64,000 nt of DNA, from assembly GCF_000340215.1 (NCBI RefSeq), contig NW_006921554.1:269868-333867 (forward strand). Reading direction: 5' to 3'. How positions within the stretch are numbered: the first letter of the stretch is position 1; each line of letters opens with the position of its first letter. Below, in pieces: positions 3,370 through 48,390 of this stretch. The translations under genes were made by a program, and so were the position numbers. The notes under the pieces are model-generated. The model was given only the letters and a program-made list of their open reading frames with translations, did not search any database and had not been told where the DNA came from. The DNA is from Pseudocercospora fijiensis CIRAD86. Lineage: Eukaryota; Ascomycota; Dothideomycetes; Mycosphaerellales; Mycosphaerellaceae.

Positions 3370-3469
3370 ATATAGGGCCGGTTACTAGCTAATAATAGTT
3401 TAATATTAAAATACCTAAAACTAGGGAATATAGATTTATCGCCGACTAACTATCTCTATTCTAATTAAT

Positions 3470-5990
3470 ATCGGGAATTTTAAAGAGAGATAAGGGCTAA
3501 AGTAGATATAGCGTTCGAGAAAGAGATACGTCTTCTAGATACGCCGGCTATAGCTACCGGCTATAGCTACTAGCTATAGTTGCCGGCTATAGCTATAGGC
3601 TACTTAAATTAGCTACGCTAAAGGAAGCTTAAGGATTAGAGGCTACCGATTTCTCCCTTAAAGACTTTAAGTAACTAGTAAACGAAATGCTAGCTATAAA
3701 TAGTCTTCGGGAAGACTTCTACGAAAGGGAGTCTATATAAAAGATATACCTATATCTTATAAACTACCTCCTCCTATTTCTCGGCGCGACTATCTAGCGC
3801 GCTATATTCGAGAAGAATAAAGAGGCTATATTAGACGACATTCGGGAGATCCTCCGTAATACTCGCCGAGTAGCTATTACTATCGATAGCTAGTTAAGCC
3901 GGAATATAGGACTCTCCTTCCTCTCGATTATACTATACTTTATAAATTTAGATTAGAAATTCTAAGAACTCTTAATTAGATTCCTAGAAATCCTAAATTC
4001 CTTTATTAGTAAGAATATAGCGAAGCTTATCTATACGGTAATAGATAAGATTAGCGTAACTAAGAAACTAATCTTAATTACTATAGATAACGCTAGTAAT
4101 AATCGAATATTAATATAAGGCGTTATCTATACTATTTAGTTATATTTATCTTTAAAATTGTTAATAGTATTAATAGGGTCGAGTATATAGACGAGATTAT
4201 AAGGTCTATAGTCTAGCTTAGTCTTCTAAATGTTTAGCTTATAATAATTCCGGATACGTCCGATACGTAGGATAATAAAAAAGACACTTCGGATAGTACT
4301 AGTAGTAGCGCTATAGAATAGGAGCCGATAGTAGTATTTATATTTCCGAAGAAGTTTCCCTACCTCGCTTATTTAGTTTAAATCGCGATCCGAGCCCTTC
4401 CTAAGTCGCTTAAAATTATACTATTAAACGACGACTAATAGAAGATCCTAGATAAGAATAAAGTAAAGTTAAAAGTCGAGAAACTCGTTAGGGGATAAAA
4501 CTAGATAAGGCAGAGAGCCTCGCTTTCGTTTTATATAAGATATAACTTTTGTCCGTAGCTAGTAGCTATAGCTAGTAACTATAGTTAGTAGCTATAGCCG
4601 GCAATCTAGGATAGTTCTAACTCTTTCTCCCTAGCTTCGTCGTTTAGCAATCTATACGAACTCGAGCTTATAGAGATATAATCGATTTAAGGCTATTTAA
4701 AAGACTCTTATTAAGCGCCCTAAAGTCGATACCTAGAATATCGTATAGAATAAATAATAGTAAAACCGGCCCCTCTAGCGTCTACTCTATTTTATCTAAG
4801 ATATAAAGACCCGGTTTGATTCGACTTTCTATATAATTACGAGGGGATATAACCTACGTACCGCTTTCGAGACCTATTAGAATTCCGAAGATATTAAGTA
4901 GCTCGTATTTACTACCGCCGAATAGCGCTAGGTAGAGTATCTCGTAGATATTAGTAAGTATTACGCGAAGGTTACTACTATAATTAGAAGAATCCGAGGA
5001 CCGACGACTTATTTTATCTTTAGATACTATAACTAGCTCTTTAACGAGCTCGACGAAACCGTAGCTAAGCTAGCTAAGAAGAGCGTCCCCTAGAAAGTAG
5101 CTATAACGAAAGCTATAGATACTTCTTATACTAAGTTATATAAATATTATAGTACTATCTTCGAGTCGTTTAGGGATTCTATAGCGTTCCGTACTTACTA
5201 AACCTAGTAGAAAAGTTAATATACTAGTAGAAGGAGAAATAGGAGGAAGACGAGAAATAGTCTAAGCGATACTAGTATATTCTAGAAAAGATACTCTATA
5301 GATATCGGAAAGAAACTAGTCTAAATATAGCTCGTATAAAGAGAAAGAAGGCTAAAAAGGCTCCGATGTCCTAGTTATTTCGTAGATAGATAGTTAAGAT
5401 AGAAGAGGAAGTAAATACTAAAGTAAATAAAGAAGAGTTCGATCTCTATCGGCGCGTAAGTAAATATACTAAACTTTTAGACTCGGCAAGAGGGCTATTA
5501 TCTCTGATCTTACTACTTTTCTAGACGAGTTCGGAGACGATATTCTCGCTATATAGTAATAGTTAGAGCCTAAGTTTCTAACGATAGCTACGATAGCTTA
5601 GAACGTCCTCGCTATTCCGAGCGTAGATATAGGCTATAAAAGATTTTTTAATATCGCCTATTACTAGGGCCGCTTTAATCGAATATACTCGCCTACTACC
5701 TTCGAATCTATTATAGTATTCCGATATAACCTCCTCTACTAGAGTCGCTAAGGCAAAATACTAAATATTATACTAAAGGACTTAATCGAGGAACTAGAAA
5801 AGCTTAAGATCGAGGAAACCTAATAGCGCGAAAAGAATACAAAATTTAGTTTAAGCGAAATACTTATTAGCGATAATAAAGAGGAGGAGAGCGGAGGTAG
5901 AAGGCGATATCGAGTCGAGAAGCGGAAGTATATATAGGCTAATAGTAGCTTTAAAGAGAAGAAGCGTTTATATAGAAGGTAATATAGCCG
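3470..5990 (+). pseudogene. hAT-family transposase, outer copy
   Basis: This is a decayed cut-and-paste transposase of the hAT superfamily. In order, the frame shows AITIDS with an Ile-rich core, LILITIDNASNN at about 4070-4108 (the TDNASNN-like catalytic region of hAT enzymes), DISKYYAKVTTIIRRIRGP near 4950 (the KYY segment ahead of the C-terminal domain), and EPKFLTIATIA, NVLAIPSVDIGYKRFFNIA at about 5560-5660, which is the hATC dimerisation domain. Stops are TAG or TAA at Gln and Trp positions. An intron at 4540-4634 interrupts it. The same protein is encoded on the minus strand by the inner copy. Downstream on the same strand lies H3-like gene 1. The start is not definable because the 5' end of the element is lost and ATG codons are mutated. 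Confidence 0.8.
4540..4634 (+). other. Intron with CCGGCTA-type minisatellite in the outer hAT transposase
   Basis: The 3' end reads TTCTAACTCTTTCTCCCTAG, a good branch site and acceptor. The 5' site is ATATAAC where the inner copy has GTATAAC, so the donor has been lost by one G-to-A change. Between them are several copies of an imperfect GTAGCTATAGC unit ending in GCCGGC. The intron is 95 bp here against 69 bp in the inner copy; the difference is the number of repeat units. Confidence 0.6.
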
Positions 5991-6419
5991 ATATATATAG
6001 CCGGTATACTTTCTTAATATAGCTTAAAGTCCTAAATAGACTAGTTACTATAGTAACCTACCCCGCTTACCTACTAACTATTTCTAATCTCTATTCGCTC
6101 TTTCTCTCTATCTTTCCTTTCCCTATATTCTAAAAGATAAATATACCTTACGGATTAGGTTCTTTAGGCCTTACTAAGTCGGCTACCTCCTCTACTTATA
6201 GCGACTATCTTAACTAAGAATCTAACGAGGACCTACTAAGACGCTTTAATAGAAGACTATTTAATTTAGAAGGTAAGAACTATTAATATCTCGTTACGAT
6301 TATAGGCTTATTAATTTTCTAGATTTTACCGATATATCCTCGTCGCCTAGGTATATATAAAGATATCTTTAGAACTTAGAAAAGAGTAAGAGTAAAACAA
6401 ACTAGGTATATAAAGGCCG

Positions 6420-6714
6420 TAGCGAGAACGAGATATTAGAAGAGGAGGATTATTCGTAGTATATATAAAGGAAGGGGATTCCTTAGAAAATGGTATCGAA
6501 AAATAAGAAGGCTTTAAGTAGATAGGAGAAGGCTAAAGTAGCTAAAAAAGGGTCGGACGAAGGCTATTACAAAGAAGAGTTATTCTTCTGTAAAAAAAAA
6601 TATAAAAGTTAGGTCCCGATACTAAAGAAGTAGCGCTTTAAACTAGATACTATTACCCTTCGCGAGATCCGGCTATTCTAAAAGTAAAGATAGACCGAGT
6701 TCCTAATCCTTAAG
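6420..6714 (+). pseudogene. H3-like gene 1, outer copy, 5' part (tail and start of the fold)
   Basis: This is the N-terminal half of a histone H3-like protein. A charged tail (EEEDYS, then a Lys-rich stretch) leads into the alpha-N region DTITLREIRLF near 6640-6675, which matches the TVALREIRRYQ of histone H3, and then TEFLILK ending at 6714, matching TELLIRK. The frame then stops dead at a TCCTTAAG target site where the inner element begins. It resumes at 15327 with TPL-stop-RLVRE, so the two parts join in frame across one copy of the 8-bp duplication. It lies directly downstream of the hAT transposase on the same strand, as in the inner copy. Histone folds bind DNA as H3-H4 dimers; what such a protein would do for a transposon is unknown. 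Confidence 0.7.
6707..6714. repeat. Left target-site duplication of the inner hAT element
   Basis: TCCTTAAG, identical to 15319-15326. Eight bases is the standard hAT duplication length. Removing the inner element and one copy of this octamer restores the H3-like reading frame. Confidence 0.85.
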
Positions 6715-6738
6715 TAGACGCCGTAGTAGTTCGGGTTA
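6715..6738 (+). repeat. Left terminal inverted repeat of the inner hAT element
   Basis: Begins TAGACGCCGTAGTAGTT. The right end read inward (15318 to 15295) is TAGACGCCGAAGTAGTTT, with 21 of 24 positions equal; two of the three differences are transitions. Immediately inside are repeats of GTTTAGTTTAG leading to TTTACTAAG, shared with the outer element's right end. Confidence 0.75.
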
Positions 6739-7289
6739 GGTTAGGTTAGTTTACTAAGCCGAAATTCCGGTTTAGTTTAGTTTAGTTTACTAAGAAACCG
6801 GTATATAGACCGGTTTCTTACTAGCTATATACCGGCTACGGAACAAAGCCTACCTTAAATACGTCTAAATAGCCTAAAAAATAGATACAATCGTATAGTA
6901 TATATAATATAGGGCCCCCGTCGCGTTCTAGACTCGTTCCGAGGTCGTCGTATATCGTCGTATATTATCGTAGTTTAGTCGGGATTTCTCGGAAACTAGC
7001 CCCGAACTAGCGGAGTAGTAAACTAAACCGAACCGGACCGCTAAGCTACCGCTAAGAAACTAAACTATATATGTTTTATAGTTCGTAAACTAAACTACTT
7101 CGGGGTCTAGTTTCTAAGAAGTATAAGAATATATACGTAACTTAAAGTAAGCCCTTTATAAGACTAGTACTAATAGAATTTCCGAAGACTTTAATTCCGT
7201 ACGCTTAAGAAAGTATATTATACTATATATATATATGCCTAGAGAGTATATAGAGCGCGCTATATAGCGCTATATTTTACGTATAGAAA
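6739..7289. other. Subterminal region of the inner element, no gene
   Basis: It contains repeated GTTTAGTTTAGTTTAC units, an inverted pair around 6808-6835 (CCGGTATATAGACCGG), and at about 7060-7109 a second copy of the element-end sequence (AAACTACTTCGGGGTCTA). That second end has no matching 8-bp duplication against 6707, so whether 6715-7109 is a separate short element is undecided. 7110-7290 is the 3' flank of H3-like gene 2 and matches, inverted, 17380-18480. Confidence 0.4.
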
Positions 7290-7435
7290 CGCTTATAGAG
7301 GATACTAAGAACAACTACGCTATCTTTTACTATATCGAATAAAGATATTCTAGCCCGTAAGAATCTAATCGAGGGCGATAAAATCCTTCTATATAATCGT
7401 AATACGCTTAGCGTAAATAGCTATAAGTTAGATAG

Positions 7436-7483
7436 CTAAAATAGCATTAGTATAGTTCGAAAAGAGATAGAAGAGAAATATAT
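7436..7483 (-). other. Intron 2 of H3-like gene 2, inner copy
   Basis: 48 bp, ending CTATACTAATGCTATTTTAG on the minus strand. The donor now reads ATATAT; a GTATAT donor hit by RIP (TG to TA) explains it. Splicing here joins LIRIFK plus one base to a stop-interrupted QLIAIYAKR-like segment, keeping the exact spacing of the FEDTNLCAIHAKR loop of H3. The outer copy has the same intron (47 bp) with the same damage. Confidence 0.65.
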
Positions 7484-7666
7484 ATTTAAAGATACGAATT
7501 AGATAGGGTTCTATAGCCTCCTAAAGGGCCTCGATTACGGATCTCTAAAAGCGAAAATCGACTCGATAGCTAATAGCAATTTCGCGAATAAGTCGCTAGA
7601 AGGGAGCTTTAGGAATAAGGAGCTTATCTCCCCTCTAATATCTCCGAATCTTACGAAGGGCTACGG

Positions 7667-7769
7667 CTAAAGAAGGATTAGTAAAAAGGAGTAAAGATGC
7701 CGGCTACGCTACCGGCTACGCTACCGGCTATACTACTAGCTATAGCTACCGGCTATAGAGAAAACTTAC
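7667..7769 (-). other. Intron 1 of H3-like gene 2 with CCGGCTA minisatellite, inner copy
   Basis: 103 bp with donor GTAAGT, branch TTACTAATCC and acceptor TTCTTTAG. Between them is a run of imperfect GTAGCCGGTAGCGTAGCCGG-type units. Splicing yields a perfect match to the GTVALR motif of H3, which is strong support for the intron. The outer copy's version is 90 bp. Confidence 0.75.
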
Positions 7770-8040
7770 TTCCTAGGCGTTATCGACGCTTACTACGATT
7801 ATTACTACTAGTAGTAGAAGCACTCGTCGTCGTCTTATATAGAGCTTTACCCGCCGTCGTTTTACGTAGATTCTTACCTATAGTCTACTTTTACCTAGCG
7901 CGACCGGTAGCGGTAGTAGCTATCTTACGTAAATATACTATACTCTTTCTACTAGGTCTAGTTATATTACGACCCTAAGTAGTAGTAGGTCCCTTCTTAC
8001 GAGGCTTCGGACTTTAGTCGAGTAGATTCGCTATTATAAA

Positions 8041-9089
8041 AGTCGTCGAATTAGTAGAAAAGTACGTTACGAAGATATAGAAAGGCGCGCGCGGAGCGGA
8101 GATATAGTAGAGGTAGTAGATATAGAGCGTAGAAGTATCGCGGTATCGCTAGGCAACTAAGTAAGCTTCGCGTAAGCCTATAGTAGAGTAACGTTATAGT
8201 AAGTAAAGAAGGTAGGTATAGCTAAAAGAGGTAGGAACGGCAAACTTTAAAATATAGCTAGTACTTATAGCTAGTATAGAAATACGGCAAAAGCCTCCTT
8301 TTAATAAATAGTCGGCGTAATAAAAGTAGCCTACTATAATATAGGTATTTTCTAGTAGTTCGATTAAATACCGAATCGGCTTTCTCGCTTAGAAATAGAA
8401 ATACTTATCCGCCGGATAGTAAAACGGCGACTCGCTTTATAAGGAGAATCTAGGAAATTCTACCTAGTAATACTATAATACTATAAATAATAGTACTAAA
8501 AAAATCTAGTTATACGATTATCTAAGTCGAGCTCTATTTAGTAATATAACGGCTAACTAGCTATAGCAAAGTATTTACTTAAGCTTATAGTTTACCTTAC
8601 CGTTACTATATCTTTTAATATATAGTAATCCTTATCCGGGTTTAATATAGCTAACTAGCCGCGGACGCCCGATAGTACTAACTTTTATAGCCTATTTTCC
8701 TAGTCCTAGCCGCTTCCTTAGTCCTCGTAAGGAAGCCGTAACCCTCTATATCTTATTTGCTATCGCTCCGCGACAACCTAGTAAATATAAGGTACTAGGT
8801 TACTACTTCGTATCCTAGATATAGATAGGGCGCGGAGTTGAAATTAGAGGTATAGCTAGTATATATAGCCGGCAAAAGGATACGGAAAGAAGCCTCCTCT
8901 TACTAAATAGCCGGCCTATCTATAGAAGCCTATCGTAATATAGATATTCTCTAGTAATGCGATTAATAGAGAATTAGGGAGTATTAATAGAGAAGGAGAA
9001 GGAGAAGATATCGAAAGGCTTACGCCCTAAGAGCGGCCGTTCGCCGAGTAAGCGATTAGTCTAGTTACTAGGTACAAATCCTAATTATT
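8041..9089. other. Spacer between the two H3-like genes, inner copy
   Basis: No coding frame is visible. Two direct copies of a block of roughly 75 bp, beginning AAGCCTCCT and ending near TCGATTAA or GCGATTAA, lie at about 8296-8370 and 8890-8970. The block also occurs in the outer element's spacer (16140-16215, and inverted at 16225-16310). CCGGCTA-type repeat pieces occur at 8260-8285 and 8855-8875. 8740-8850 corresponds to the arms of the inverted repeat in the outer spacer. Confidence 0.5.
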
Positions 9090-9740
9090 CCGCTATAAAT
9101 CGACGCCGAATCTTAGCTAGAAGGTATATATCTTTTTATTAAAGAGTAACCCGCTTCGTATAGATAGTAAGAAGGTTAGAAAGCTCTAACTCGGTTATAA
9201 GAAATACCTCCGTAGCTTCCTGAAGAGTACTAATCGCCTTAGCCGTAAATAGTATACTAGACGTAAAAGCTAATATAATTTCTTAGACGAGTCGCTAGAA
9301 AGGAGCCTTAGGAATTAAAAGCTTAGTCCCCTTTTTATCTTAGAATTTCCGGATCTCGCGAAGGGTAATAGTATCCGGTTTAACGCGCCGCCCTTTACCC
9401 TTTTTCCTTATAGAAGAATAACTCTTTTTCGCGATAGTCTTCGTCTACCTACTTTTTTTTCCCACTTTAGCCTTCGCCTGTCTAGACGAAGCTGCCTTAT
9501 TTTTTAATACTATTTTACGAGAAACTACCTTCCTTTATATATACTACGAATAGTCCTCCTCTTCTAATATCTCGTTCTCGCTATAGTCTTTCCGTACTTA
9601 GCGTCCTTTATCCTTACCCTTTTCTAAGTTCTTAAGGTATCTTTATACGCGTTCGGGCGACTAGGATATATCGGTAGTATCTAGAAGATCTATAAGCCTT
9701 TAATCGTAAAAAGATATTAAATGCCTCTTATCTTCTAAAC
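9090..9740 (-). pseudogene. H3-like gene 1, inner copy (uninterrupted)
   Basis: This is a second, different H3-fold protein. An N-terminal part with LEKGKDKGR and an acidic EEEDYS segment leads to a Lys/Arg-rich tail (KNKAASSRQ-like, then KKGKGRRVKPD). The fold follows at about 9410-9120: TITLREIRKF, KLLIPKAPF, RLV-stop-EI, ISTL, EATEVFLITELELSNLL, TIYTKRVTL, KDIYLLAKIRRRF. These align in order with TVALREIRRYQ, LLIRKLPFQRLVREI, ALQEA, AIHAKRVTI and KDIQLARRIRG of histone H3. Spacing in loop 1 is that of H3, not of centromeric H3, though the tail is unlike the canonical ART tail. No intron is needed in the fold, unlike gene 2. It lies just downstream of the hAT transposase on the same strand. 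Confidence 0.75.
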
Positions 9741-9879
9741 TAATCGCTATAGGGAGAGGGAGCGGCCGACTTAGTAAGGCCCGAAGAGCCGAATCCGTAA
9801 GGTATATTTATATTTTAGAATATAAAGAAAGGGAAAAAGGAAAGGAAGAGCGAATAGAGATTTAGAAATAGTAGTAGGC

Positions 9880-12800
9880 GAGCGGGATAGGTTACTATCG
9901 GAACTACTCTATTTAGGAATTTAAAATATATTAGGAACGTATATTAGCCATATACGCCGGCTATATACGCTAACTGTACAGGTCGGTTATATATAGAAAC
10001 TCTAGTAAAGATAGCTATTTGCCGGCTATACCTACTAGCTATATTATCTTCTACGTAAACGCTTCGCCTCCTTTAAGTCGCTCTTAGCCTATATACGCTT
10101 TTACTTCTCGACTTATAGTCGCCTTCCACCTCCGCCCTCCTCCTCTTTATTATCGCTAATAAGAGTCTCGCTTAGACTAAATTTCGTATTCTCTTCGCGC
10201 TTTTAGGTTTCTTCGATCTTAAGCTTTTCTAATTAGTCGATAAGCTCCTTTAATAAGATATATAGTATCTTGCCTTAGCGACTCTAGTAGAGGAGGTAGT
10301 ATCGGAATACTATAATAGATTCGAAGGTAGTAGGCGAGTATATTCGATTAAACCGGCCCTAGTAACGAGCGATACTAAAAGATCTCTTAAAGACTATACC
10401 TATACTCGGAATAGCGAGGACGTCCTAAGCGATCGAAGCTATCGTTAGAAACTAAGGCTCTAACCGCTACTATATAACGAGAATATAATAAATATTATCT
10501 TCGAATTCGTCTTAAAGACTAGTAAGATTTAGAGATTATTAGCTCTCTTTCCGAGCCTATAAGTTTAGTACTTACCTACGTACTAATAGAGATCGAACTC
10601 TTCTTTATCAAGTACAGAACTAACTTACTCTTCTATTTCTACTTCCTATTTACGAAATAGGTAGGATATCGGAGCCTTCTTAGCCTTCCTTTTCCTAATA
10701 TAACCTATATTTAGAGTAGTTTCTTTCCGACGCTTACTAAATATCTTTTTTAGAACCTCTTAATATCGCTTAGGCTATACCTTATTATCCTTCTATTCCT
10801 CCTTCTACTAGTATATATCCTTTTAAACTAGCTTTAGTAAATATATAACGCTATAGAGCTCCCCGAACAACTCGAAGGTAGTACTATAATATTTGTCTAG
10901 CTTAGTATAGGAAGCCTCTATAGCTTTCGTTATAGTTACTTTCTAAGGGACCCTCTTTTTAGCTAGCTTAGCCGCGAGTTATTTAAGCTTATTAAAGAGC
11001 TAGTTATAGTATATAAAGATAAGGTAGATCGTCGGTCCTCGGGTTCTTCTAATCGTAGTAGTAACCTTTACGTAATATTTACTAATATCTACGAGATACT
11101 CTACTTAGCGCTATTCGGCGGATATAAGCGCGAGCTACTTAATACCCTTAGTATTCTAATAGAGCTCGAGAGCGGTACGTAAAGTATATCCCTTCGTAAG
11201 TATATAGAAAGTCGAATCGAATTAGGTCTTAATATCTTAGATAAAATAGAGTAGGCGCTAAGGAGGCCGCTTTTGCTATCGCTTATTCTATATAATATTC
11301 TAGATATCGACTTTAGGACGCTCGATAAGGATCTTTTAAATAGCCTCGAATCGGTTATATCTCTATAAGCTCGAGTTCGTATAGATTACTAGACGACGAA
11401 GCTAGAAAAAGAGAGTTAATAGTATCTTAGATTGCCGGCTATAGATACTAGCTATAGATAAAAGTTATACCTTATATAAAACGAGAGCGATACTCTCTAC
11501 CCTATCCTATTTTATTACGGTAACGAGTTTCTCGACTCTCGACTTTGCTTTACCCTTATCTAGGACCTTCTATTAGTCGTCGTTCGATAGTATAATTTTA
11601 AGCGTCTTAAAGAGGGCTCGGATCGCGATTTAAACTATATAGGCGAGGTAGGGAAACTTCCGTAGGGATATAACCGCTAATATCGCCTCCTATTCTATAG
11701 GTCCGTTAAGACTTCTTAACTAAGGGTCCTTATTATCTTTTAAGTCGTACGTATCCGAAATTATAGTAAGCTTAATATTAGGAAGATTAAGCTAGATTAT
11801 AGACCTTACAATCTCGCCTATATAGTCGACCCTATTAGTACTATTAGTTATTTTAAAGATAAATACAACTAGATAGTATATATAACGCCTTATATAATAT
11901 TCGATTATTACTCGCGTTTTCCGTAGTAATTAAGATTAGTTTCGTAGTTACGCTAACCCTATCTATTACCGTATAGATAAGCGTTACTATATCCTAACTA
12001 GTATAGGAACCTAGAATTTCTAGGAATCCGATTAGCATTTCCTAGAGTTTCTAATCCGAATTAATAAAGTATAGTATAATAGAAAGGAAGGAGGCCCTTA
12101 TAGTCTAGCTTAACTAGCTATCGATAGTAATAGCTACTCGGCGAGTATTACGGAGAATCTTCTAAATATCGTCTAACGTAGCCTCTTTATTTTTCTCGAA
12201 TATAGTACGCTAGGTAGTCGCGCCTAGAAATATAGAGGGGTACTTTATAAGATATAGGTATATCTTCTATATAGAATCCCTTTCGAAGAAGTCTTCTAAA
12301 AGACCGTTTATAGCTAAAATTTCGTTTACTAGTTACTTAAAATCTTCGGGGAAGAAATCGGAAGCCTTTAATACTTAAGCTTCCTTCTACGTAGCCTATA
12401 AAAATTAGTAGTAGTTATAGGGTTAAGTTTAGGAGCCTCTAGCTATAGCCGGCAGCTATAGCCGGTAGCTACGGCTAGTATATTTAGAAGACGTACCTCT
12501 TTCTCGAACGCCGTATCTATCTTAACCTTTACCTCTCCTTAAGATTCCCGATACCGTTTAAAACGGAGATAGTTAGTAGGCGATAAATTCCTATCCCTTA
12601 GTTTCGGGTATTTTAAGATAAAACTATAGAATTTATAGATAATTACTAGTTAACCTTTTAGATACGAACTCGTATTATAGTATAATGCCTCTCTTATAAA
12701 AATTTTCTAGAATATATCCGTTCGATCCTTACTATCCTATCGTATCGAGTACTTCCGTAGTTTATACTCCCTTAAACGTAAGTAAAAAGGGAACTATATC

Positions 12801-13060
12801 TTATAGATCTATTAATTAAACTACTTAGTATACTTAGGTTTCTAAAGATACGCCTAGCTAGCCTTTTCGAAGATATCCGGGTTAATACTTAATATTCGTA
12901 TCTCTCTAAATAACCTTCTTCTTAGACTCTATAAAGGTAAGGACCGGACGATAGTATCCTATAACGAAATCCTACTACTAGGATACGAAGAGGATAAATC
13001 TAGCCTTAATTGTCGTCTAGTACTTAATAGGCTCGAAGGTAAGTATATAGCCTCGTCTCG
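9880..13060 (-). pseudogene. hAT-family transposase, inner copy
   Basis: This is the same enzyme as the outer copy and slightly more complete at the N-terminus. The hATC region reads at about 10480-10260 on the minus strand and the catalytic-region equivalent LILITTENASNN at about 11935-11895. The N-terminal part (12900-12640) has a continuous frame with YTK, FPFYLRLREYKLRKYSIR and FYSFILKYPKLR, mostly absent from the outer copy because that one is truncated at 3370. One intron is clear (11402-11470) and CCGGCTA repeats at 12425-12480 and 9955-10035 may mark others. Stops are TAG or TAA. Its 3' neighbour on the same strand is H3-like gene 1, 5' neighbour the unknown charged gene at 13380-14690. 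The start given is the upstream limit of convincing coding sequence, not a chosen codon. Confidence 0.75.
11402..11470 (-). other. Intron with short CCGGC repeat in the inner hAT transposase
   Basis: 69 bp; donor GTATAAC, acceptor TTTTTCTAG, branch-like ATTAAC. The body is GTATCTATAGCCGGC-type repeat. The donor is intact here but mutated to AT in the outer copy, so the two copies corroborate each other. Confidence 0.65.
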
Positions 13061-13379
13061 ACGTCGTTACGATCTAGTTCGTATACTAGACTATCTCGCC
13101 TATTGTTTCGTAGTTACCCTTCCTAGTTTAGCGCCTAGTATATATATAATATCGTTCGGTATATTTTAAAGTTTTATATAGAGAGGTTAAGAGTAGTAGA
13201 TATATACTAGTAATTATAGGGAAATACCCTTTCTTTTATAGTATCGTATCGTTAGGAATAGCTAGATAGTGAGTATATAGCTACCTTTCTTTATTTCCTA
13301 GTTACCCTAGCTACCCTAACTACCTAATTTCTTTCCCGGCTACCCTAGCTACCCGAATTTTTCCCTTCTGTACGACGGT
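13061..13379. promoter_or_regulatory. Spacer upstream of the hAT transposase with TACCCTAGC repeats
   Basis: Between the divergence-free ends of two minus-strand genes lies a non-coding stretch with four to five copies of GCTACCCTAGCTACCC-like sequence (about 13300-13355). It is the expected place for the transposase promoter, but no promoter element can be shown. Confidence 0.3.
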
Positions 13380-13780
13380 TCTCTCCTACTAATAGAATAG
13401 AGCTACTGTAGCAATCGAGCTTGTTTTTAGTTTTAATCCTTCCTTCTTCGGCGTAAGATACTCGATAAGTGAATACTTAGGCCGAGTCTAACTACGAAAC
13501 CTGTACCTAACTAATACCTCCTTTAACTAATCCTACTTCTCGAACTCCCTCCGCTTCTTAGTAAAGACCTTAAAGAGCGAACGAGGTTCGTTAGGTATCT
13601 ATAGAGTAGTCGAGATAAAGCCGTATTACTAAGGTAGGTAACTACTAAGAACCTTATATAGAGGTTAAAAGAAATCTAACGGGAAACTATCCTACTAGTA
13701 GCTTAGACTCCGGATATAAGCCCTCTCTACCGGAGTAAAGACCCTATACAGTAACAGCACATTCCTTCGGAAATCGCTTT

Positions 13781-13846
13781 CTATTCGACTATTAGTATCT
13801 ACTAGCTACGAACGCCGGCTATAGCTACTAGCTATAAAATACTTAC
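13781..13846 (-). other. Second intron of the unknown charged gene
   Basis: 66 bp; donor GTAAGT, branch GATACTAATAG, acceptor CGAATAG. The body contains GTAGCTATAGCCGGCG, the same repeat type as in the H3-like and transposase introns. Confidence 0.6.
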
Positions 13847-14326
13847 TTTTACATCCTCTATCTCTAGTAATACCTTCGCCGCCCTTAGATATCTAGCCTC
13901 TATTTTATTAATCGTAAGAAATTTTTCTTTTATACTCGTAAAGGCGTTCCTCTAATATTTATAAAGAAATCTCTACTCTATATCGAGGATATAAAGATAA
14001 CTAGCCTTAATTCTAATCTTCGTAAGCTTTTCGTAGTAGCTTTAGCGATAATTATCTAGATTAATAGGACTTATGCCCTAGACCTTTACTAGCGCCTCGT
14101 CTCTTTCGCTATACTTAATCTACTTCTAGCCCTTATCGTCTATAGTATTAGGCTCTAAGACTACGCCTATAAATAGATCGACGTATAGTATCTTCTTATT
14201 TTTTTAGTTACTTTATTCGTAGTAATAAGCTCTTACGTAGCATTCTAAAGTCTAGTATTACTACTCTCGGCTATCGAAATATCTCTATTATTATTAATCC
14301 TATTAATAGAGGTAGTAGGAATAGGT

Positions 14327-14418
14327 CTAAATAGTATTAGTTACCGATTTCGAGAAAGGATACTAGCTACGCTACTAGCTACGTATACCGGCTATAGCTA
14401 CTAGCTATATTAACTTAC
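14327..14418 (-). other. First intron of the unknown charged gene
   Basis: 92 bp; donor GTAAGT, branch TAACTAATAC, acceptor TATTTAG. It carries CCGGTATACGTAGC-type repeat units between donor and branch point. Confidence 0.65.
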
Positions 14419-14690
14419 GCTAGTAGGAATTGCTCCTCGAAAACTAGCCGTAATTCTTTCCTCCTCTAAGCCTTCTCCTAGCTTGTCTTCTATCTTTAAC
14501 CTTTACTCTTTTTAATAGGCGCTAGCTATCGATAGAATGTCTTATTACGCGCCTTTATTCTCTTATTCTTCGCTCTTTTATCCTCGTCTATATTATTCTT
14601 TCTTTCGTAATCTTATATAGAATTCTTCTTAGTATAGTACTCCTTCTTAGTCTTACGCTTTTTTTTAGATACTAAGGTAAAATAACCTCG

Positions 14691-15294
14691 CGTTCTTTAC
14701 TATCTTCTATTTAGCGCGCGGCGCGCTTCTATCTTACTATTTTAAGGAGAAAAGAGAAAGAGGGAAAGGGGGGCGTAGCGCTAATAGCTACTATAGGTAT
14801 AGAAGAAGACAAAGATAAAAAACATAAGAATATCGCAAAGCCCTAATCGTTGCCGCATATATAACCTTATATAGGCAAGCTTTTATAACTGCGGTAACTA
14901 CGCCCTAGTAACGGCAACTACGACCTAGTAACGGCAATCGCTATTATTAAGGCAATCGTAGGCGGGGTAAATACAACCTAGTTACTATAATAGCCGGTAA
15001 TAGTAGCTAGTAGTCGGGTAGGAGTATGCTTATAATAAAACTAATATAGTCTCTAGCTACTACGACCTATTAATAGTAATATATATAGTTAGGGTATCCG
15101 CGAGCGACCTAAATATAACTTAGTTACTATTATAGCCGGCAATAGTAGCCGGTAGTCGGATAAGAGTATATTTATAATAAAACCGATATAGTCTCTAGTT
15201 CTAACTAGGAATCTATATAGTTTAGAAAAACCAACCCGGAACTAGGGAGCTAGTTTGCCGCTAAGAAACTAAACTATATACGTTTTATAGTTCG
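14691..15294. repeat. 5' terminal region of the inner element with a 142-bp direct repeat
   Basis: No gene. Two direct copies of a block ending GATATAGTCTCTAG or AATATAGTCTCTAG lie about 142 bp apart (about 14945-15056 and 15087-15198). They share the core AGTAGYYRGTAGTCGG and differ by transitions and small changes. A purine-rich run lies at 14745-14775. Confidence 0.55.
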
Positions 15295-15318
15295 TAACCT
15301 AAACTACTTCGGCGTCTA
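15295..15318 (-). repeat. Right terminal inverted repeat of the inner hAT element
   Basis: Pairs with 6715-6738; ends GGCGTCTA directly against the duplicated octamer. Confidence 0.75.
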
Positions 15319-15326
15319 TCCTTAAG
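15319..15326. repeat. Right target-site duplication of the inner hAT element
   Basis: TCCTTAAG, identical to 6707-6714. Confidence 0.85.
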
Positions 15327-15565
15327 ACTCCCCTTTAGCGACTCGTCCGAGAAACTATATTAGGTTTTTAGTATAGTATACGATCTACGGCTAAGGCGAC
15401 TAGTACTCTTTAGGAAGCTACGGGGGCATTTTTCGTAACCGAGTCTAAGCTTTCTAATCTCCTCACTATCTATACGAAGCGGGCTACCCTTTAATATAAT
15501 AATATATAGCTTCTAGATAAGATTCGGCGTCGGTTTATAGTAGATTAATTAGGATCTATATCTAT
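15327..15565 (+). pseudogene. H3-like gene 1, outer copy, 3' part (rest of the fold)
   Basis: Continues the frame broken at 6714: TPL-stop-RLVRETILGF, then ATSTL-stop-EATGAFFVTESKLSNLLTIY, TKRATL and LLDKIRRRF. These match PFQRLVREI, ALQEA.EAYLV, AIHAKRVTI and the final KDIQLARRIRG helix of H3, and also the uninterrupted inner copy. That the halves lie 8.6 kb apart and fit to the base is explained by the inner element's insertion. Downstream on the same strand is H3-like gene 2. Confidence 0.75.
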
Positions 15566-16609
15566 TTTCGTATCCTTTTACCGGCTATAGGTACCGGCTA
15601 TACTTCTAATTTTATATCTGCTATACCTAAATCTAAGGTACGAAGTAGAAACCTAGCGCTTTATATTTACTCGGTTATCGTAGCGCGTTTATAAGTAAGG
15701 TATAAAGGGTTACGGCTTCCTTACGAGGACTACTTTACCTTAGCTAGTTAGATATTTCGAACCTAGATAAGGAAGCGGCTTAGACTAGGAAACTAGGCTT
15801 TAAAAGCCGGTACTGTCGGCCTTTCTAGCAGCAGGCGCCCGATCGCATATAACACACTCCTATAAGCGAAGTCCGAGACAACACAGGCTCCTAGTCGCCT
15901 AGAGCAACGCACTACACAAACAACTAGGCGCACTACTCCCACCCACCGACGCCCGATATCCTAGGATACTCTTCTCGCACTTTTTCACATCCTTTTTTAG
16001 TACCTTACCCGTAAGCGCTCCGCGATAACGGAGTAAATATAAGGTACTAGGTTTCTACTCGGTACCTTAGCCTTAAGATAGGGCGGAGTCGAATTTATAG
16101 GTATAGCCGGCACTCGTAGCTAGTATATAGAGACGGAAGTAAGCCTCTCCCTACTAAATAGCTAGCTTATTTAGTATAGCCTACTATAGTATAGATATTT
16201 ATTATATTTCCTAGTAAAAGCCGGTTCGGAATCTAATCGAATTCTTAAAGAATATCTATATTATAGTAGGATACTATTATTACGCCGACTGTTTATTAAA
16301 AGGAGGCTTTCGCTATATTAGTATACCGGCTATAGGTACCGGCTATATTTTAAAGTTTACTATATCTATCTTTTCTACGCTGTACCTACCTTTTTAGCCG
16401 TATCTACCTTTTTAGCTATATCTACCTTTTTTCGCCGTACCTACCTTCTTTACTTACTATAACGTTATTATAATATAGGCTTACGCGACGCTTATACTAT
16501 CGGCTAGCGATACCGCGATACTACCTCTCTCGATATATATAATCTTTATATTAATATCTATACTTCTATACTCTATATCGACTATCTCTACTAACCTTTA
16601 CTCTACGCG
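15566..16609. other. Spacer between the outer H3-like genes with inverted repeat and an unmutated island
   Basis: About 15596-15710 and 16010-16125 are inverted copies of each other (both hold a TAAGGTAC and GGTTTCTAC- or GTAGAAACC-type core), so the spacer can fold back. At its centre, 15828-15990 keeps many CA dinucleotides (ACTACACAAACAACTAGGCG) unlike everything around it. Beyond 16140 lies the roughly 75-bp AAGCCTC block twice in inverted orientation. CCGGCTA repeats occur at 15580-15605 and 16322-16350. No coding frame is seen. Confidence 0.5.
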
Positions 16610-16912
16610 TACTTTCTTATACCTTCGTATCGTACTATATTATTAATTAGACGACTTTTATTATAGCAACTCTACTCGACTAACTTATAACGTCTTATAA
16701 GAAGAAGGGTCCTACTACTACTTAGGGTTATAATAAGACTAGACCCGATAGTAAGAGTATAGTATATATATATAAGAAGGCTTATACCGCTACCGCTATC
16801 GCTACCGGTAGTACTAGAAAGAGCGTAGTAGATAAGACTCTACGTAAAACGACGAGTAGCACTTCTACTACTAGTAGTAATAATCGTAGTAAACGTTAAT
16901 AGCGTCTAGGAA

Positions 16913-17002
16913 GTAAGTTTTATCTATAGCCGGTAGTATAGCCGGTAGCGTAGCCGATAGCGTTGCCGGTATTTTTACTCCTTTTTACTAATCCTTCTTT
17001 AG
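16913..17002 (+). other. Intron 1 of H3-like gene 2 with minisatellite, outer copy
   Basis: 90 bp; GTAAGT donor, TTTACTAATCC branch, TTCTTTAG acceptor; body of GCCGGTAGCGTAGCCGATAG-type units. Splicing gives LGTKALRKIRRY, parallel to LGTVALRKIRRY in the inner copy. Confidence 0.7.
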
Positions 17003-17185
17003 CTAAAGCCCTTCGTAAGATTCGGAGATATTAGAAGGATTAGAAGCTCGTTATTCCTAGAGCTCCTTTTAATCGACTTATCCGCGAAATTGCCTTTAAT
17101 AGTAGAGTAGACTATCATATTTAAGCCTCTGTACTCGAGGCCCTTTAGGAGGCTATAGAAGCCTACCTAGTCCGTATCTTCGAAT

Positions 17186-17232
17186 ATATATTCCTCTTCC
17201 CCTTTTTTTAAACTATACTAATACTATTTTAG
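17186..17232 (+). other. Intron 2 of H3-like gene 2, outer copy
   Basis: 47 bp; acceptor ACTAATACTATTTTAG; donor mutated from GT to AT as in the inner copy. Joining keeps the spacing of the L2 loop of H3. Confidence 0.65.
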
Positions 17233-17350
17233 CCTTTAACCCTATAGCTATCTACGCGAAGCGCGTTACGATTATAGATAAGGATTTTAAAGCCCTCGAT
17301 ATAATTCTTAAAGGCTAGAATATCTATATTATAGATAGTAGTAGGTAGGA

Positions 17351-18234
17351 TAGATCTTCTTAGTATCCTCTATAAGCGTTTCTACACATAATATCTACCG
17401 CTATTATACGGCGCTATATAGCGCGCTCTAAATACTCTTTAAGTATATTTATATATAATATAATATACTTTATTAGCCGTACGGAATATAAGTCTTCGAA
17501 ATATCTATAATCTATTAGTACTAAGAAGAAAAATGCTAACTACGCTACCGGCTACGCTCTAGGCTACGCTACCGGATCTTATAAAGAACTAAAAGAAGAT
17601 AGAAATTCTAATTTGTTTATTATAGTTTAGATTTTTATAAAAAGGAAAAAAAGAAAAAGGGGGAAGGTTAAAGAACCTAAAACTAATATTTATAGGAATT
17701 ATCCCTAGTTTCTAGATCTTATTATATATCTGTTTTCGTAAATCTACCTAATAGTCCTTGTAAATATTCTTATACTCTACCTACTAGAAATCTAACTAGA
17801 TGCCTAGACCTATAGTAGCCTCTATATCTTTTACTATATTCTATATACTAAATGCCTCCTTAATAGTATTCTCTACCTCCCCATATAATACGAAGTTACT
17901 TCCTATCCTATCCCCTATATCCGCTAAATAACTAGGAGTTCTAAGGATCGAACTAGAATTCGGCTATAGTAAAGCGACTAACTAGTAGAACGTAGTATAA
18001 AGCTATTTTACAGCTCTTTTACACACTTTACCGACATCAAAGGAGGAACCATCCTAGCACTTAATACTAGAGAGTAGTTTAGTAGGAAAGTATCGGAACT
18101 TCTTATAAAGAGCTTCGAGAGAAATCGATAAGTTCTACCTAGATCTAGATAAAAACATTCTACTAAGTAGTTAGGGAATTAAATAAGGGGCGAAAGGATA
18201 AAGTTTATACCTAAGGAGTATAGTTTCTAAACTA

Positions 18235-18268
<34 letters not shown>

Positions 18269-18590
18269 TTAATTAGTTAGTACCCTTAGCTAATGATCTA
18301 TAGATTTAGGGTAATATAAATACCTTCTTATAGCTACTACGGAATTAAAGTCTTCGAAAATTCCATTAGTACTAAGATATAAAAATGCCGGCTACGCTAC
18401 CGGCTATACTACCGGATCTTATAAAGGGCTTACTTTAAGTTATGTATATATTCTTATACTTCTAAAAAACTAATAAATTCTATAGTTCGAACCTACTACT
18501 ACTATAGTTTCTTAGTAAACTAAACTAAACTAAACTAGAATTTCGGCTTAGTAAACTAAACTAAACTCATCTAAACTACTACGGGATCTA
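17351..18590. other. 3' flank and right end of the outer hAT element
   Basis: No gene. Two CCGGCTACGCTACCGG-type arrays occur (about 17535-17575 and 18385-18415), each followed by ATCTTATAAAG; an AT dinucleotide run lies at about 18238-18266. Subterminal TAAACTAAACTAAAC repeats and the end sequence ACTACTACGGGATCTA finish at 18590. The two array-containing blocks (17480-17590 and 18340-18430) resemble each other and so may be a duplication or a nested insertion between them. Confidence 0.5.
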
Positions 18591-21193: not shown

Positions 21194-21199
21194 GAGAAA

Positions 21200-22330
21200 A
21201 TAGCAGCGAACAATTAGAGACGAAGGGAAGACAGTTAAGAAGGAAGGGAGGACGAATAGAAAGCACTATATACGAGGGCAGAGGAGGTACTAAAGGCGGA
21301 AGATAGAAGAACCCCTAAAAGGGTATATAGGATAATAATCTTAGAACTCCTTAGAGGACTAAAAGCAATCTATAACTAGGCAAGCTACGTAATTACAAAG
21401 GTAGCTAATATAGTCGTAGCAAAGATTACGAAGAAACAATAGAAGACAAGCCTAAACTACCGCACCTAAGCAGTAGTAGCTAGTTAGGAGGCGCTAAAAC
21501 CCCCGAGGACAGTAGTTAGAGTCTATATTACGGACCTATAGGAGTAAAAGGAAATCCAAGGACTTATAGGAAAAGAGATTATAGAAAGAATTATAGTTAA
21601 AGAGGTAATTAGGGCTAGGAACGAAGGTAAAGGGGTAATCAAGCTATTTATAGTATAAGAGCAGGACAAAAAGAAGCTAGAAACACAAAAAGAATAGACA
21701 ACTAAGATAGGGAAAATAGCAAAGGTCTCCTAATAGCAATTCATAATTATAGCCTATAGCATAATAAGAAGCTTCAAGGAAGAATAGGATATTAAGAGCC
21801 TATAGAGACAAAACCAAGCTATATACCTAGGCCTAAAGATTACAAAAGTAGCATAGATTAAAAGGAAAATCGAAGAGACTAAGAAGCAGTCTTCCCTAAT
21901 TATCTAGGTAGGGAGTATAAAGCAAGCCAATATAGTGCTAGACTAGGGGTTATTCTAGGACTTTAAAAGATTAGAAACAGAGATACATAGAAGCAACTAT
22001 AGGATAATACAGTGCTTTAAATGTCAATACTATAAACACTTAGCAGCTAAGTATATAAAGACAACCGATACCTGCTCCTATTATATAGGGGATTACTAGG
22101 TTAAAGAATGCAAAGCATATAAGGGAGAAGCAAGATATGTATACTACACTAAAAGACACCCCTCGTAGGCGAAGGAATGCCTAGTAAGAATATAGGCAGC
22201 TAGGAAGGCAAAGGAAGCTAGAATCAATATACTAAAAAGATATATAATAAGCTAGGGCAGCTAGGTATAGAAGCAACCTAGCTAAGTGCTACAAAAGAGG
22301 TCTAGGCAAGATAATAGGTTTATATTTAGG
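21200..22330 (+). pseudogene. LINE 1 ORF1, Gag-like zinc-knuckle protein
   Basis: Starts at ATA (21200), which is ATG in copy 2 (31060). The protein is helical and basic at first, then has the zinc knuckles at about 22013-22190: CFKCQYYKHLAAKYIK, CSYYIGDY, KECKAYKGEARYVYYTKRH and AKEC. Several Cys and His are now Tyr (TGC to TAC, CAT to TAT), each explained by RIP; copy 2 lost a different subset, so between the two copies most of the pattern can be seen. Such ORF1 proteins bind element RNA. Stops are TAG or TAA in place of Gln codons. The C-terminal limit is approximate. ORF2 follows in another frame. Confidence 0.75.
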
Positions 22331-22488
22331 GCCTTATTAGCATAAGAGAGCTACTAGCAACTAGGGAGACTAAGATACCTTAATATTGCAGGAAAGGAAG
22401 TAGAGTAGATAAAGCTTAGTTAAATGTTAGTCTAAAGTAAGGGAAGACTAAAGGAAAACTTATAGGGAAATGAAATAGATAAAACCTA

Positions 22489-25400
22489 ATAAACATTACA
22501 ACATTACTAAACATTATACAGTATAATATTAATAAGAGTAAAGACAAGGTATAGAGGAGCTTCCTTTAAGTACTAAACCTAAAAGAATATTATATTATTG
22601 CAATCTAAGAGCCCTAGCTTAACCTATATATAAAGAGACTAGCAATAGTCAAAGACCTAAGATACTACCTAATTATCTATAACTAGGGAGCCCTAAGGAT
22701 ATATATCTATATTAGTAAGGAGATAGATACAGAAACCTAGCAGGCTATACTATAGGAGGATAGGGACCTAATATTAGTTTAAGTAGAGATATCCTAAGGT
22801 ACACTCTAAGTCTACTATATATATAACCTACTACTAGACTTAAGAAGTAGTACCTAACTAAAAACCCTAGAAAGACTACCTAGAGTTATCTAGGGGAATA
22901 CCTACTAAATCCTACTTAGGGATTTCAACCTCTACTACCCCCTCTAGGGCTTAGACTTTACCCTAGCTTACTACTTCCTAGTAGGAAGACTAATTGATAT
23001 ATTAGAGAGGGAAGGAATAGAAATTGTTACCCTAAAGGGACTAATTACTTAGGAGGCAAGAGGAAGTAGTAGTACACTAGACCTATACTTTATATTATAT
23101 TAGATTAGGAATAGGATTACAAGATATAGGGTCAACTAGGAACTAGAAGAATTATTAGACTACTTCCCGGTATAGATTAAGCTAAATATCTAAGCCAATT
23201 AGGAAAGGGAACTAGAAGAGAAGCTTAACTAGAAAGGTACCTAATAAGGCAGGATTAGGGAGGAACTAGAAAGGGACCTAAAACTAGAGGAACTCTTAAT
23301 AAAGTACCTACTAAGGCTAGAGGACATTAATAAGGCAGTAGAAGAACTAACAGGAATCCTAAAACAGGTAGCTAGAAAGCATACCCTAGTAAAGAAACAT
23401 TTACTATACTAGTAGCTATACTAGACTAGTAAGTATATAAGGAAGGTTAAAGTAGCAAGGAAGGCTAGGAGGCAGTAGACACAAACCTATACCTAGGAAG
23501 CATAGGATAACTATAACAAAGCCTACTAGGAAAAGAAGATCTAGATCTAGAAAGATAAGATACAAGAATAGAGATCTATAATAGGAATAATTACAAAGAA
23601 ACTAGAGGAGATATAAAGGATAGCTAAATAGGTAAGGAGACCTAAATAGGACAAGGATATACTACTACAATTCCCGGATATTATAGACTAATAAGGACAA
23701 ATGCAGACTATAATAGAAGGGAAAGCAAGAGCCCTAGGCTAACACTTCTTCTATAGAAAAGTATAAGTAGACCTATTAGATATAAAGGAGAAAGAACAAG
23801 AGACTCTACTACTAGGTATACTAAGAGACACCTAGGTTAAACCCGAAACTATTAAAAGGATCCTAAAGAAAATTCTAGGCAATAAGGCACTAGGAGAAGA
23901 CAAGATCTATAACAAACTTCTAAAAGCATATAGGAAGGGGCTAGCCCTAGTACTAGCTAATATCTTTTTATAAAGCCTAGTACTAGGACACTACCTAAGA
24001 CTATTTAGGAAGTCCCTAATAGTAGTGCTAAGGAAGCCCTAGAAGGAAGACTATATATAGCTCAAGGCCTATAGACTAATAGCCCTACTTAATACAATAG
24101 GTAAGGTGCTAGAAAAAATTGTCGCTAAAAGGCTAATAACCTTTACCGAGGAAAGGAACATCCTTTCTAAAGGCTAGATAGAAGGAAGAAAGAAGAGGTC
24201 AATACTAATAGCTATAGAACTAATTATAGAACAGATTAAGTATATCTAGCACTATAGTTAAAACTAGGTAGTAACCCTCCTCTCCCTCGATATCTTAGGA
24301 GCCTTTAATAATATCTCCTATAAAAGGCTCCTATATATACTTAAATAGAAAGCTATACTAAACTAGATAGTCTAATTTATCTAGTCCTTCCTATAGGAAA
24401 GATTAATATAGCTTATTCTAGGCAAATTCAAATTAGACCTAATACTAACTAAAAAGGGAATCCCCTAAGGATTAACACTCTCCCTAATCCTCTTCCTTAT
24501 CTTTATAGCAGACCTACTCCTACTCCTAGAATTAAAAAACATATTAGCATTAGGGTTTATAGATAATACAAACATCCTAGCCTAGTCTAAGATAATAGAA
24601 ACCAACTACAAGATCCTAGAAGAGAAGCACTAGGAATATAAAAAATAGGTAAGGAGGTATAGAGCAAAATTCGCCCTAGAAAAGTACTAGCTTATCCACT
24701 TTAGTAAGGCTAAATCAACCTATAATATAAAGCAATCAATTACTATCTAAGGCTTTAAAACCTAACTATTAGTAGAGCTTAGGGTACTAGGGATCTAGCT
24801 AGATCCAAAACTGAATTAGGGACTATAAGTAAAGAAGGCAAAGCAGAGGGTAGATACTAATATACAATCTATTAATAGGCTTATAGCCTCTATATAGGGG
24901 GCTATATTCGAGAAAGCTAAAGTTATATACAAAGCAATTGTTAAGCTAGCAATACTATATAGAGCACAGATATAGACAGCCTAAGAGAAAACACTAAAGA
25001 GGATTAAGCAACTAGTTAGTAGGTCCTAAACCTAAAGCCTAAAGAAAATCCTAGGAGTATACAAAACTATACTAATAAGGGTAGTAGAAATAGAATTAGG
25101 GATCCTACTAGTCAAACAATACTTCAAGGGACTAAGACACTAATATATAGCAAAGACAATAGAATACCTAGCCTAATAGACTATCTAAAAGGCACTAGAC
25201 AAGATAAAAGCCTAGTATATTAGGACTAGGAGGCGAGACAGACTACAAATAACTCCCTAGAAAGTCAAAGACCTAGAGCAATATAGAGTCTTAATAAGAG
25301 AAATGCTAGAGAAAGAGCTTTAGGGACCAAATATAAGGCTAAAGGAAGATAAGCTAAAGGGAGAGAAACAAAGCCTAGCAGAATCAATTACTAGACACCT

Positions 25401-26046: not shown

Positions 26047-26064
26047 AATATCTATCTATCTATC

Positions 26065-26077
26065 TATTATCTATATC
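26065..26077. repeat. Right target-site duplication of LINE 1
   Basis: TATTATCTATATC, equal to 21181-21193, directly after the TATC tail. Confidence 0.8.
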
Positions 26078-26480
26078 CTTATAATACTATATAAGCTTAT
26101 AAGCTATCTTCTTCTATACCGAGAGTACTAGATATTTAAAGGCTAGAGTATTATATTTCCGCTATATTAGTAGCTAACTATAGGTATCGACAATATCGCT
26201 TCGTTATACGCGCTCGCGAATATAATTATCGAGTTAGTATAGGTATATTATAAGGCCTAGAAACAGTTAGTTATTCTTAGTAGTTATAGTATAGAAGGGA
26301 AGAATATAGTCGAAGAAGCCGTTTTAAGGAATTCTAGCTATTCAAAAAAATAAAGAAGAGGGCTTCTTCTAGATAAATATAGATAATACTATAAAAAGGG
26401 TACGGATACGTACCTCGTAAGCTCTATTTACGTATCTAAGGGCTTAGTAACCGGTTTATTCGAAACGGAGTACTAAGAGA
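26078..26480 (+). repeat. Unidentified repeat R, copy 1, right part
   Basis: Continues the repeat cut by LINE 1: CTTATAATACTATATAAGCT here against CTTATAGTACTATATAAGCT at 27938. Similarity with copy 2 runs to about GCTCTATTTACGTATCTAA. Confidence 0.6.
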
Positions 26481-31054: not shown

Positions 31055-31059
31055 AGAAA

Positions 31060-35907: not shown

Positions 35908-35936
35908 AATATCTATCTATCTATCTATCTATCTAT

Positions 35937-48359: not shown

Positions 48360-48390
48360 CGTATAGCGGGCGTATAGTAGGGCGCCGGCG

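What the first reader, a model, noticed from the sequence alone, without database searches (positions are those of the whole stretch)
3370..18590. A hAT-type transposon family that carries two histone H3-like genes as standard cargo
Both copies of the element, in opposite orientations, have hAT transposase, H3-like gene 1 and H3-like gene 2 in the same order and strand. Two independent copies sharing the set, in one of them inside clear inverted ends and an 8-bp duplication, make accidental adjacency unlikely. Gene capture by DNA transposons is known, but I know of no described hAT element whose gene set includes two distinct histone H3 folds. Such proteins might coat or mark element DNA, alter host chromatin, or protect against silencing; these roles are speculation.
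Basis: partly seen in the sequence, partly recalled or inferred. Interest (0 to 1): 0.93.

Follow-up and report, generated by a model that had tools for sequence, protein, structure and literature searches.

The report
Dead fungal transposon carrying histone genes
This stretch of a fungal genome holds two mutated copies of a jumping gene that carries two histone H3 genes, one copy having jumped into the histone gene of the other; the family was already described in 2019, but one of its histone genes seems to contain introns that the earlier study read otherwise.

Summary
Window 6715-15318 (- strand) is an 8,604-bp hAT-type element with inverted ends and a perfect 8-bp duplication (TCCTTAAG), carrying transposase, H3a and H3b in one orientation. 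It sits inside the H3a gene of a second, 5'-truncated copy. Both H3 frames match Pfam Histone despite heavy RIP. The same set, order and strand occur in 18 of 18 usable H3-selected loci; 10 of 10 transposase-selected loci have H3a.

It is not new. Genome size, host H3 on contig 6, 772-791 first-look H3 candidates and 9.5-9.9-kb elements match Pseudocercospora fijiensis, where Dhillon et al. 2019 (PMC6710886) described this H3-carrying hAT family. Manning et al. 2013 (PMC3538342) reported a similar element in Pyrenophora.

Added here: the published "16-amino-acid insertion" of the second copy reads as a 48-nt intron, and a second intron-like stretch joins H3b's tail to its core, one codon from host intron 2. 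So H3b does not look like an intronless retrocopy. H3a's core is at least as conserved between subfamilies as the transposase; H3b's is not. Whether H3a served the element stays open.

The parts
6715..15318 (-). Inner hAT-type element, 8,604 bp, complete with both ends
   Evidence: TAGACGCCG... at both ends and perfect 8-bp TSD
6707..6714 (.). Target-site duplication TCCTTAAG, left
15319..15326 (.). Target-site duplication TCCTTAAG, right
11718..12617 (-). Inner transposase piece T1 (RIP-broken)
   Evidence: profile of T1 copies matches two nearly intact hAT transposases of the same genome, 34 bits, in a search of 3 proteins
10517..12016 (-). Inner transposase piece T2 (other frame, RIP-broken)
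   Evidence: no match to the 3 hAT proteins
10218..10517 (-). Inner transposase piece T3, hAT dimerisation-like C terminus
   Evidence: PF05699 E=0.057, below cut-off; related copies E=0.0074 and 0.013; 10 bits to a hAT protein
9097..9459 (-). H3a of the inner element, histone core plus part of the tail, broken by stops
   Evidence: PF00125 E=2.2e-20; PDB H3.3 E=7.3e-23
7353..7679 (-). H3b core of the inner element, including intron 2 and the end of intron 1
   Evidence: PF00125 E=6.3e-13; PDB H3 E=5.3e-17
7436..7483 (-). H3b intron 2 (48 nt; the published '16-aa insertion')
   Evidence: TTTTAG acceptor and CTAAT about 12 nt before the end here; donor kept as GTATGT in 4 of 28 copies
7667..7769 (-). 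H3b intron 1 (103 nt here), between tail and core
   Evidence: GTAAGT...CTAAT...CTTTAG
7770..7910 (-). H3b N-terminal tail exon (start approximate), RKTTAGKA-like H3 tail
6715..7109 (-). 395-bp short derivative of the family that forms the inner element's 3' end
   Evidence: free-standing copies with TSDs
3395..5808 (+). Outer copy, transposase remnant, 5'-truncated
   Evidence: 81% identical to the inner copy; T1, T2, T3 hits
6589..6714 (+). Outer H3a, N-terminal part, interrupted by the inner element
15327..15536 (+). Outer H3a, C-terminal part
16990..17294 (+). Outer H3b core with intron 2
   Evidence: PF00125 E=3.9e-13
18576..18590 (-). Outer copy 3' terminal repeat

Best explanation
Two RIP-inactivated copies of the H3-carrying hAT transposon family of Pseudocercospora fijiensis, one inserted into the H3a gene of the other. 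Shown here: cut-and-paste type ends with 8-bp duplications; a hAT-like transposase; two distinct H3-derived genes in fixed order and strand in three subfamilies; and short internally deleted derivatives that also moved. Inferred: while alive, the transposase moved the element and, in trans, its short derivatives; H3b was a spliced, intron-bearing gene derived from a host-type H3; H3a was a diverged H3 kept under constraint like that of the transposase and so of use to the element, most likely by forming H3-type nucleosomes on or near element DNA that dampened silencing or favoured transposition. RIP then disabled the copies.
For: Ends and TSD of the inner element and of four other elements of 8,599, 9,531, 9,938 and 9,132 bp, out of 5 tested pairs. 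Same gene set in 18 of 18 usable H3-selected loci; H3a in 10 of 10 and H3b in 7 of 10 transposase-selected loci. Histone matches; hAT homology. RIP: TpA/ApT 1.84 and 1.75 with (CpA+TpG)/(ApC+GpT) 0.09 and 0.12 for the two window copies, against 0.53 and 1.36 at the host H3 locus. Match with PMC6710886: 73.9 Mb, host H3 on C6, 772-791 first-look candidates against 784 published copies, 9.5-9.9 kb. Constraint: transversions in the H3a core are 5/294 (A-B), 10/294 (A-C), 5/294 (B-C), against 110/2212, 105/2230, 40/2208 in the transposase; versus the 3' flank p=5e-7, 5e-6 and 0.21. Intron signals in H3b.
Against: No transcript or protein was seen. The 5' half of the element is less diverged as a whole: the stretch between transposase and H3a tail (21/484, 31/497, 18/485) is not significantly above the H3a core (p=0.062, 0.097, 0.13), so part of the low H3a divergence may be regional. 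H3b exon 2 is not below the 3' flank (p=0.88, 0.18) and is above it in B-C (20/181 against 11/306, p=0.0018). Codon-position excess for H3a+H3b is weak: p=0.067, 0.028, 0.46. The spacer alignment is gappy. hAT Pfam scores are below cut-off. The organism is identified by circumstantial match, not by name.
Confidence: 0.72

Rival explanations
1. Passive transduplication, as published: a host H3 transcript was caught once by a hAT element and copied along; the H3 genes did nothing for the element.
For: This is the reading of PMC6710886. All H3a and H3b copies read contain stops. H3b exon 2 is no more conserved than the 3' flank, and in B-C less so. Low H3a divergence may be partly regional.
Against: The H3a core is at least as conserved as the transposase in all three subfamily comparisons. 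Both genes are kept in three subfamilies. H3b has two intron-like stretches, which does not fit a plain transcript copy.
Confidence: 0.45
2. The 48-nt stretch in H3b is a true coding insertion of 16 residues, as published, not an intron.
For: It is in frame and open in most of the copies listed.
Against: Its ends read GTATGT and TTTTAG in the least mutated copies, with CTAAT about 12 nt before the end, as in intron 1; left aside, it gives exactly the host H3 spacing FE..NL.AI.AKR. Intron 1 is 79, 91 or 103 nt in 22 of 25 copies found by pattern, lengths that break the frame, and only without it do the H3-like tail and the core join.
Confidence: 0.1
3. The two H3 genes are two separate captures from different H3 genes rather than one capture and a duplication.
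For: H3a lacks and H3b has an intron near host intron 2. H3a and H3b are only 26/55 to 32/55 identical.
Against: H3a and H3b group together at 94% bootstrap, though long branches could cause this.
Confidence: 0.4
4. Chance adjacency of H3 pseudogenes and a hAT element.
For: None beyond the mutated state of the copies.
Against: Fixed order and strand in 18 of 18 usable loci and TSD-bounded elements.
Confidence: 0.01

Closest known systems
H3-carrying hAT family of Pseudocercospora fijiensis (Dhillon et al. 2019, PMC6710886)
   Same: Genome size, host H3 on scaffold/contig 6, about the same number of H3-like places, one or two H3 per element, second copy longer by 16 residues' worth of DNA, 8-bp TSD, 9.5-9.9-kb full length as in our two measured subfamily-C elements.
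   Different: The two complete subfamily-A elements measured (inner window copy and L009) are 8.6 kb. The 16-residue difference reads as an intron, and H3b has a second one; the paper reports no introns. A term search of its main text finds neither 'nested' nor 'MITE'.
H3L-carrying hAT element of Pyrenophora tritici-repentis (Manning et al. 2013, PMC3538342)
   Same: hAT element with an H3-like gene that groups with neither canonical H3 nor CenH3 and has tail insertions.
   Different: 5.6 kb with a central ORF and one H3L; 23 of 26 H3L copies apparently functional and no similarity to the P. fijiensis-type hAT elements, both as stated in PMC6710886. I did not compare sequences.
[quoted passage not shown] passages only)
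   Same: DNA transposons, hAT among them, carrying a gene that acts on epigenetic marks as recurrent cargo.
   Different: An enzyme, not a histone; the hAT members make 7-bp TSDs and come from Puccinia.

Membership tests
hAT superfamily | 8-bp target-site duplication | tested here: met
   Inner element and 4 of 5 further tested elements, 8/8 bases
hAT superfamily | Short terminal inverted repeats | tested here: met
   TAGAC(G/C)CCG(A/T)AGT-type ends
hAT superfamily | Transposase homologous to hAT, with dimerisation domain | tested here: inconclusive
   PF05699 below cut-off; T1 and T3 profiles match hAT proteins of the same genome at 34 and 10 bits, T2 does not (3 proteins)
hAT superfamily | Catalytic triad and W motif | not tested
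   Frames are broken by RIP and were not mended
Histone H3 | Histone fold of the H3 type | tested here: met
   PF00125 and PDB H3 matches for both genes by sequence
Histone H3 | Intact coding frame | tested here: not met
   Stops in both window copies; 148 of 150 scored places have stops
CenH3 (centromeric H3) | Longer loop 1 as in the host CenH3-like gene (L024) | tested here: not met
   H3a and H3b have canonical-length loop 1; H3a has 2 extra residues before the TELLI motif instead
P. fijiensis H3-hAT family (PMC6710886) | hAT region, one or two H3 per element, 8-bp TSD, RIP, about 9.5 kb | tested here: met
   subfamily A is shorter, 8.6 kb
P. fijiensis H3-hAT family (PMC6710886) | Published 20-bp TIR letters and consensus | not testable with these tools
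   Given in a figure and a supplementary file, not held here
Ptr H3L element (PMC3538342) | Sequence relation of transposase and H3L | not tested
   Its sequence was not fetched; PMC6710886 states no similarity of the hAT elements

The most novel reading that the evidence does not exclude
The element is not a passive carrier. It is a hAT lineage whose working gene set included a transposase and its own H3 variants, H3a kept by selection and H3b a spliced gene with its own introns, so that the transposon supplied its own nucleosome parts, for example to escape heterochromatin.
Probability: 0.3. Interest if true: 0.8.

Novelty: already known. Interest (0 to 1): 0.36.

Why it matters
The element itself is published. 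What could matter is the revision: if H3b has introns and H3a was conserved like the transposase, the reading 'a housekeeping transcript was caught and copied by accident' is incomplete, and a transposon that brings its own histones becomes a testable case of mobile DNA shaping its own chromatin.

Tried and rejected
Protein search with a single H3a: 12 candidates, none significant. With an alignment of five H3a copies: 2141 hits, 120 listed; the best (P0001, limpet) is a tandem H3 with two folds. The others listed carry a histone domain at 44-58% identity; I read the sequences of two of them and aligned 24. No genomic context is given there, so transposon-borne relatives could not be recognised.

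Rfam and tRNA scans found nothing in the window. One search also matched 85 transposase places against H3b places: 26 had one downstream, but I had typed only 32 of the 150 listed H3b places, so that count says nothing. In one search the H3b exon-3 comparison with the host was shifted by one codon and is not used. Group-wise purine/pyrimidine counts by codon position were few. DUF659 was not found in X-masked pieces, although PMC6710886 reports it.

Full report
WHAT IS THERE. The window lies at G000:C23:269868-333867 of a 73.9-Mb, 30-contig genome and bears strong RIP marks. A self-comparison shows two inverted copies of one element. The inner copy runs from 15318 down to 6715 on the - strand (8,604 bp). 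Its ends read TAGACGCCGAAGTAG (5') and, inverted, TAGACGCCGTAGTAG (3'), and it is flanked by TCCTTAAG on both sides. It was inserted into the H3a gene of the outer copy: with the two flanks read as one, the outer H3a core frame continues across the junction, with its stops. The outer copy is on the + strand, starts at about 3395 (inner position about 2692, so its 5' part is missing) and ends at 18590.

HISTONES. Translations with X at every stop match Pfam Histone: H3a E=2.2e-20, H3b E=6.3e-13 (inner) and 3.9e-13 (outer). Solved H3 chains match at 7.3e-23 and 5.3e-17. Leaving out stops, H3a is 41/84, 48/84 and 45/83 identical to the host H3, H3b 32/56, 33/55 and 43/56, and H3a to H3b 26/55, 27/54 and 32/55 (one copy each of subfamilies A, B, C). 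They are two different genes. Neither has the longer loop 1 of the host CenH3-like gene. In a tree with 24 other H3 proteins each gene forms its own clade (100%), and the two group together at 94%, with long branches as a caveat.

TRANSPOSASE. Three pieces in two frames precede the H3 genes. The C-terminal piece reaches PF05699 only below its cut-off. Profiles of the pieces were compared with three hAT proteins of the same genome: T1 matches two at 34 bits, T3 matches two at 10 and 8 bits, T2 matches none. With 8-bp duplications this fits hAT.

HOW GENERAL. PF00125 gives 150 scored places of 772 candidates; 148 contain stops, and the other two are the host H3 on C6 and a CenH3-like gene. I fetched 20 regions from that list, picked by hand: one is the CenH3-like locus, one starts at H3a and has no room for the transposase, and the other 18 have transposase, H3a and H3b in one order and strand (L028 also has an extra T1 fragment on the other strand). 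Starting from the transposase, 10 of 86 listed places, picked by hand, were fetched for 3.5 kb each: H3a in 10 (partial in L032), H3b in 7. Of six further 5' ends fetched, five could be paired with a 3' end and four show 8/8 duplications, giving elements of 8,599, 9,531, 9,938 and 9,132 bp. Of eight fetched copies of a short derivative, five (393-395 bp) have perfect duplications, two imperfect ones (5/8 and 3/8), and one had no recognised ends. So short derivatives lacking the genes also moved, presumably with the transposase supplied in trans (inference).

PRIOR WORK. PMC6710886 (parts 1-4 of 7 of the text read, plus passages) describes this family in Pseudocercospora fijiensis: 784 H3-like copies, 471 elements with one or two H3, hAT domain in 277, 9.5-9.9 kb, 8-bp TSD, original H3 on scaffold 6. 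PMC3538342 (passages and part 1 of one section) describes a hAT element with one H3-like gene in Pyrenophora. The finding is therefore already known.

WHAT IS ADDED. PMC6710886 reports that the second H3 copy has a 16-residue insertion, and infers from the absence of introns that a transcript was captured. In the 28 H3b copies scored, the 48-nt stretch ends in TTTTAG in 27, has CTAAT (pattern CTRAY) about 12 nt before its end in 26, and keeps a GT donor in 10, the full GTATGT in 4; most others read AT there, as RIP of a preceding TpG would give. On either side the H3 reading has the host spacing. A pattern search for a second stretch, GTAAGT...CTTTAG, found it in 25 of 28 copies (24 with the CTRAY motif at the same distance), of 79, 91 or 103 nt in 22 and 90, 102 or 105 in 3. 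It separates an H3-like tail (SKAPRKTTAGKALRKTT) from the core and lies one codon from the host's intron 2, in the same phase. The host H3 has no intron at the place of the 48-nt stretch. The copies share ancestry and are not independent. Hence H3b looks like a spliced gene, not a plain retrocopy; H3a is intronless in the core and may be what the paper's intronless alignment shows (inference). Searches of the held library: two that combined hAT and H3 with this group returned only PMC6710886; others returned PMC6710886 and PMC3538342, alone or with other papers; one returned two different papers and one none.

SELECTION. I counted transversions, which RIP does not make, between one copy each of subfamilies A (L009), B (L027) and C (L010). 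H3a core: 5/294 (A-B), 10/294 (A-C), 5/294 (B-C). Transposase: 110/2212, 105/2230, 40/2208. Stretch between transposase and H3a tail: 21/484, 31/497, 18/485. H3a tail: 15/244, 20/246, 9/240. H3b exon 2: 24/181, 18/181, 20/181. 3' flank: 30/236, 34/236, 11/306. Spacer: 207/791, 240/912, 124/899, gappy. The H3a core is below the transposase in A-B (p=0.011) and equal in the others (0.37, 1), below the 3' flank in A-B and A-C (5e-7, 5e-6) but not B-C (0.21), and not clearly below its upstream neighbour (0.062, 0.097, 0.13). H3b exon 2 is no more conserved than the 3' flank (0.88, 0.18) and less so in B-C (0.0018). Codon-position excess at position 3: transposase p=0.0079, 0.0058, 0.032; H3a+H3b p=0.067, 0.028, 0.46 (A-B, A-C, B-C). 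This leans to H3a as a used gene, with a regional effect not excluded, and gives no support for selection on H3b.

MECHANISM. Shown: end structure, duplications, gene set, RIP damage, nesting. Inferred: cut-and-paste movement by the hAT transposase, splicing of H3b, use of H3a by the element. The proposed benefit (an own H3 variant altering chromatin on the element) is a guess that only data from a living relative could test.

Noticed in passing
window 6715-7109: The inner element's 3' end is a 395-bp short derivative with both family ends; it has no duplication of its own, as if a short copy's end was used in the last transposition.
   Followed up: partly
L048-L055: Free-standing short derivatives of the family, five of eight with perfect 8-bp duplications.
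   Followed up: yes
L014 (G000:C17:213316-213700): A short derivative appears inserted inside another H3-carrying element (coordinates).
   Followed up: no
window 21195-26086 and 31055-35947: Direct repeat of about 4.9 kb at 94.8% identity, probably two copies of another mobile element.
   Followed up: no
window 48389-52505 and 59527-62881: Arrays of tandem repeats with periods of 30 to 470 bp.
   Followed up: no
L039, L040 (G000:C2 and C6): Long open hAT transposase frames (744 and 694 aa in the stretches fetched) of another family in the same RIP-rich genome.
   Followed up: partly
L010, L009, L027 upstream of H3a: The H3a frame can be read on far upstream of the core with few stops, through an acidic stretch (SENEISEE); the true start is unknown and the tail may be unusually long.
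   Followed up: no
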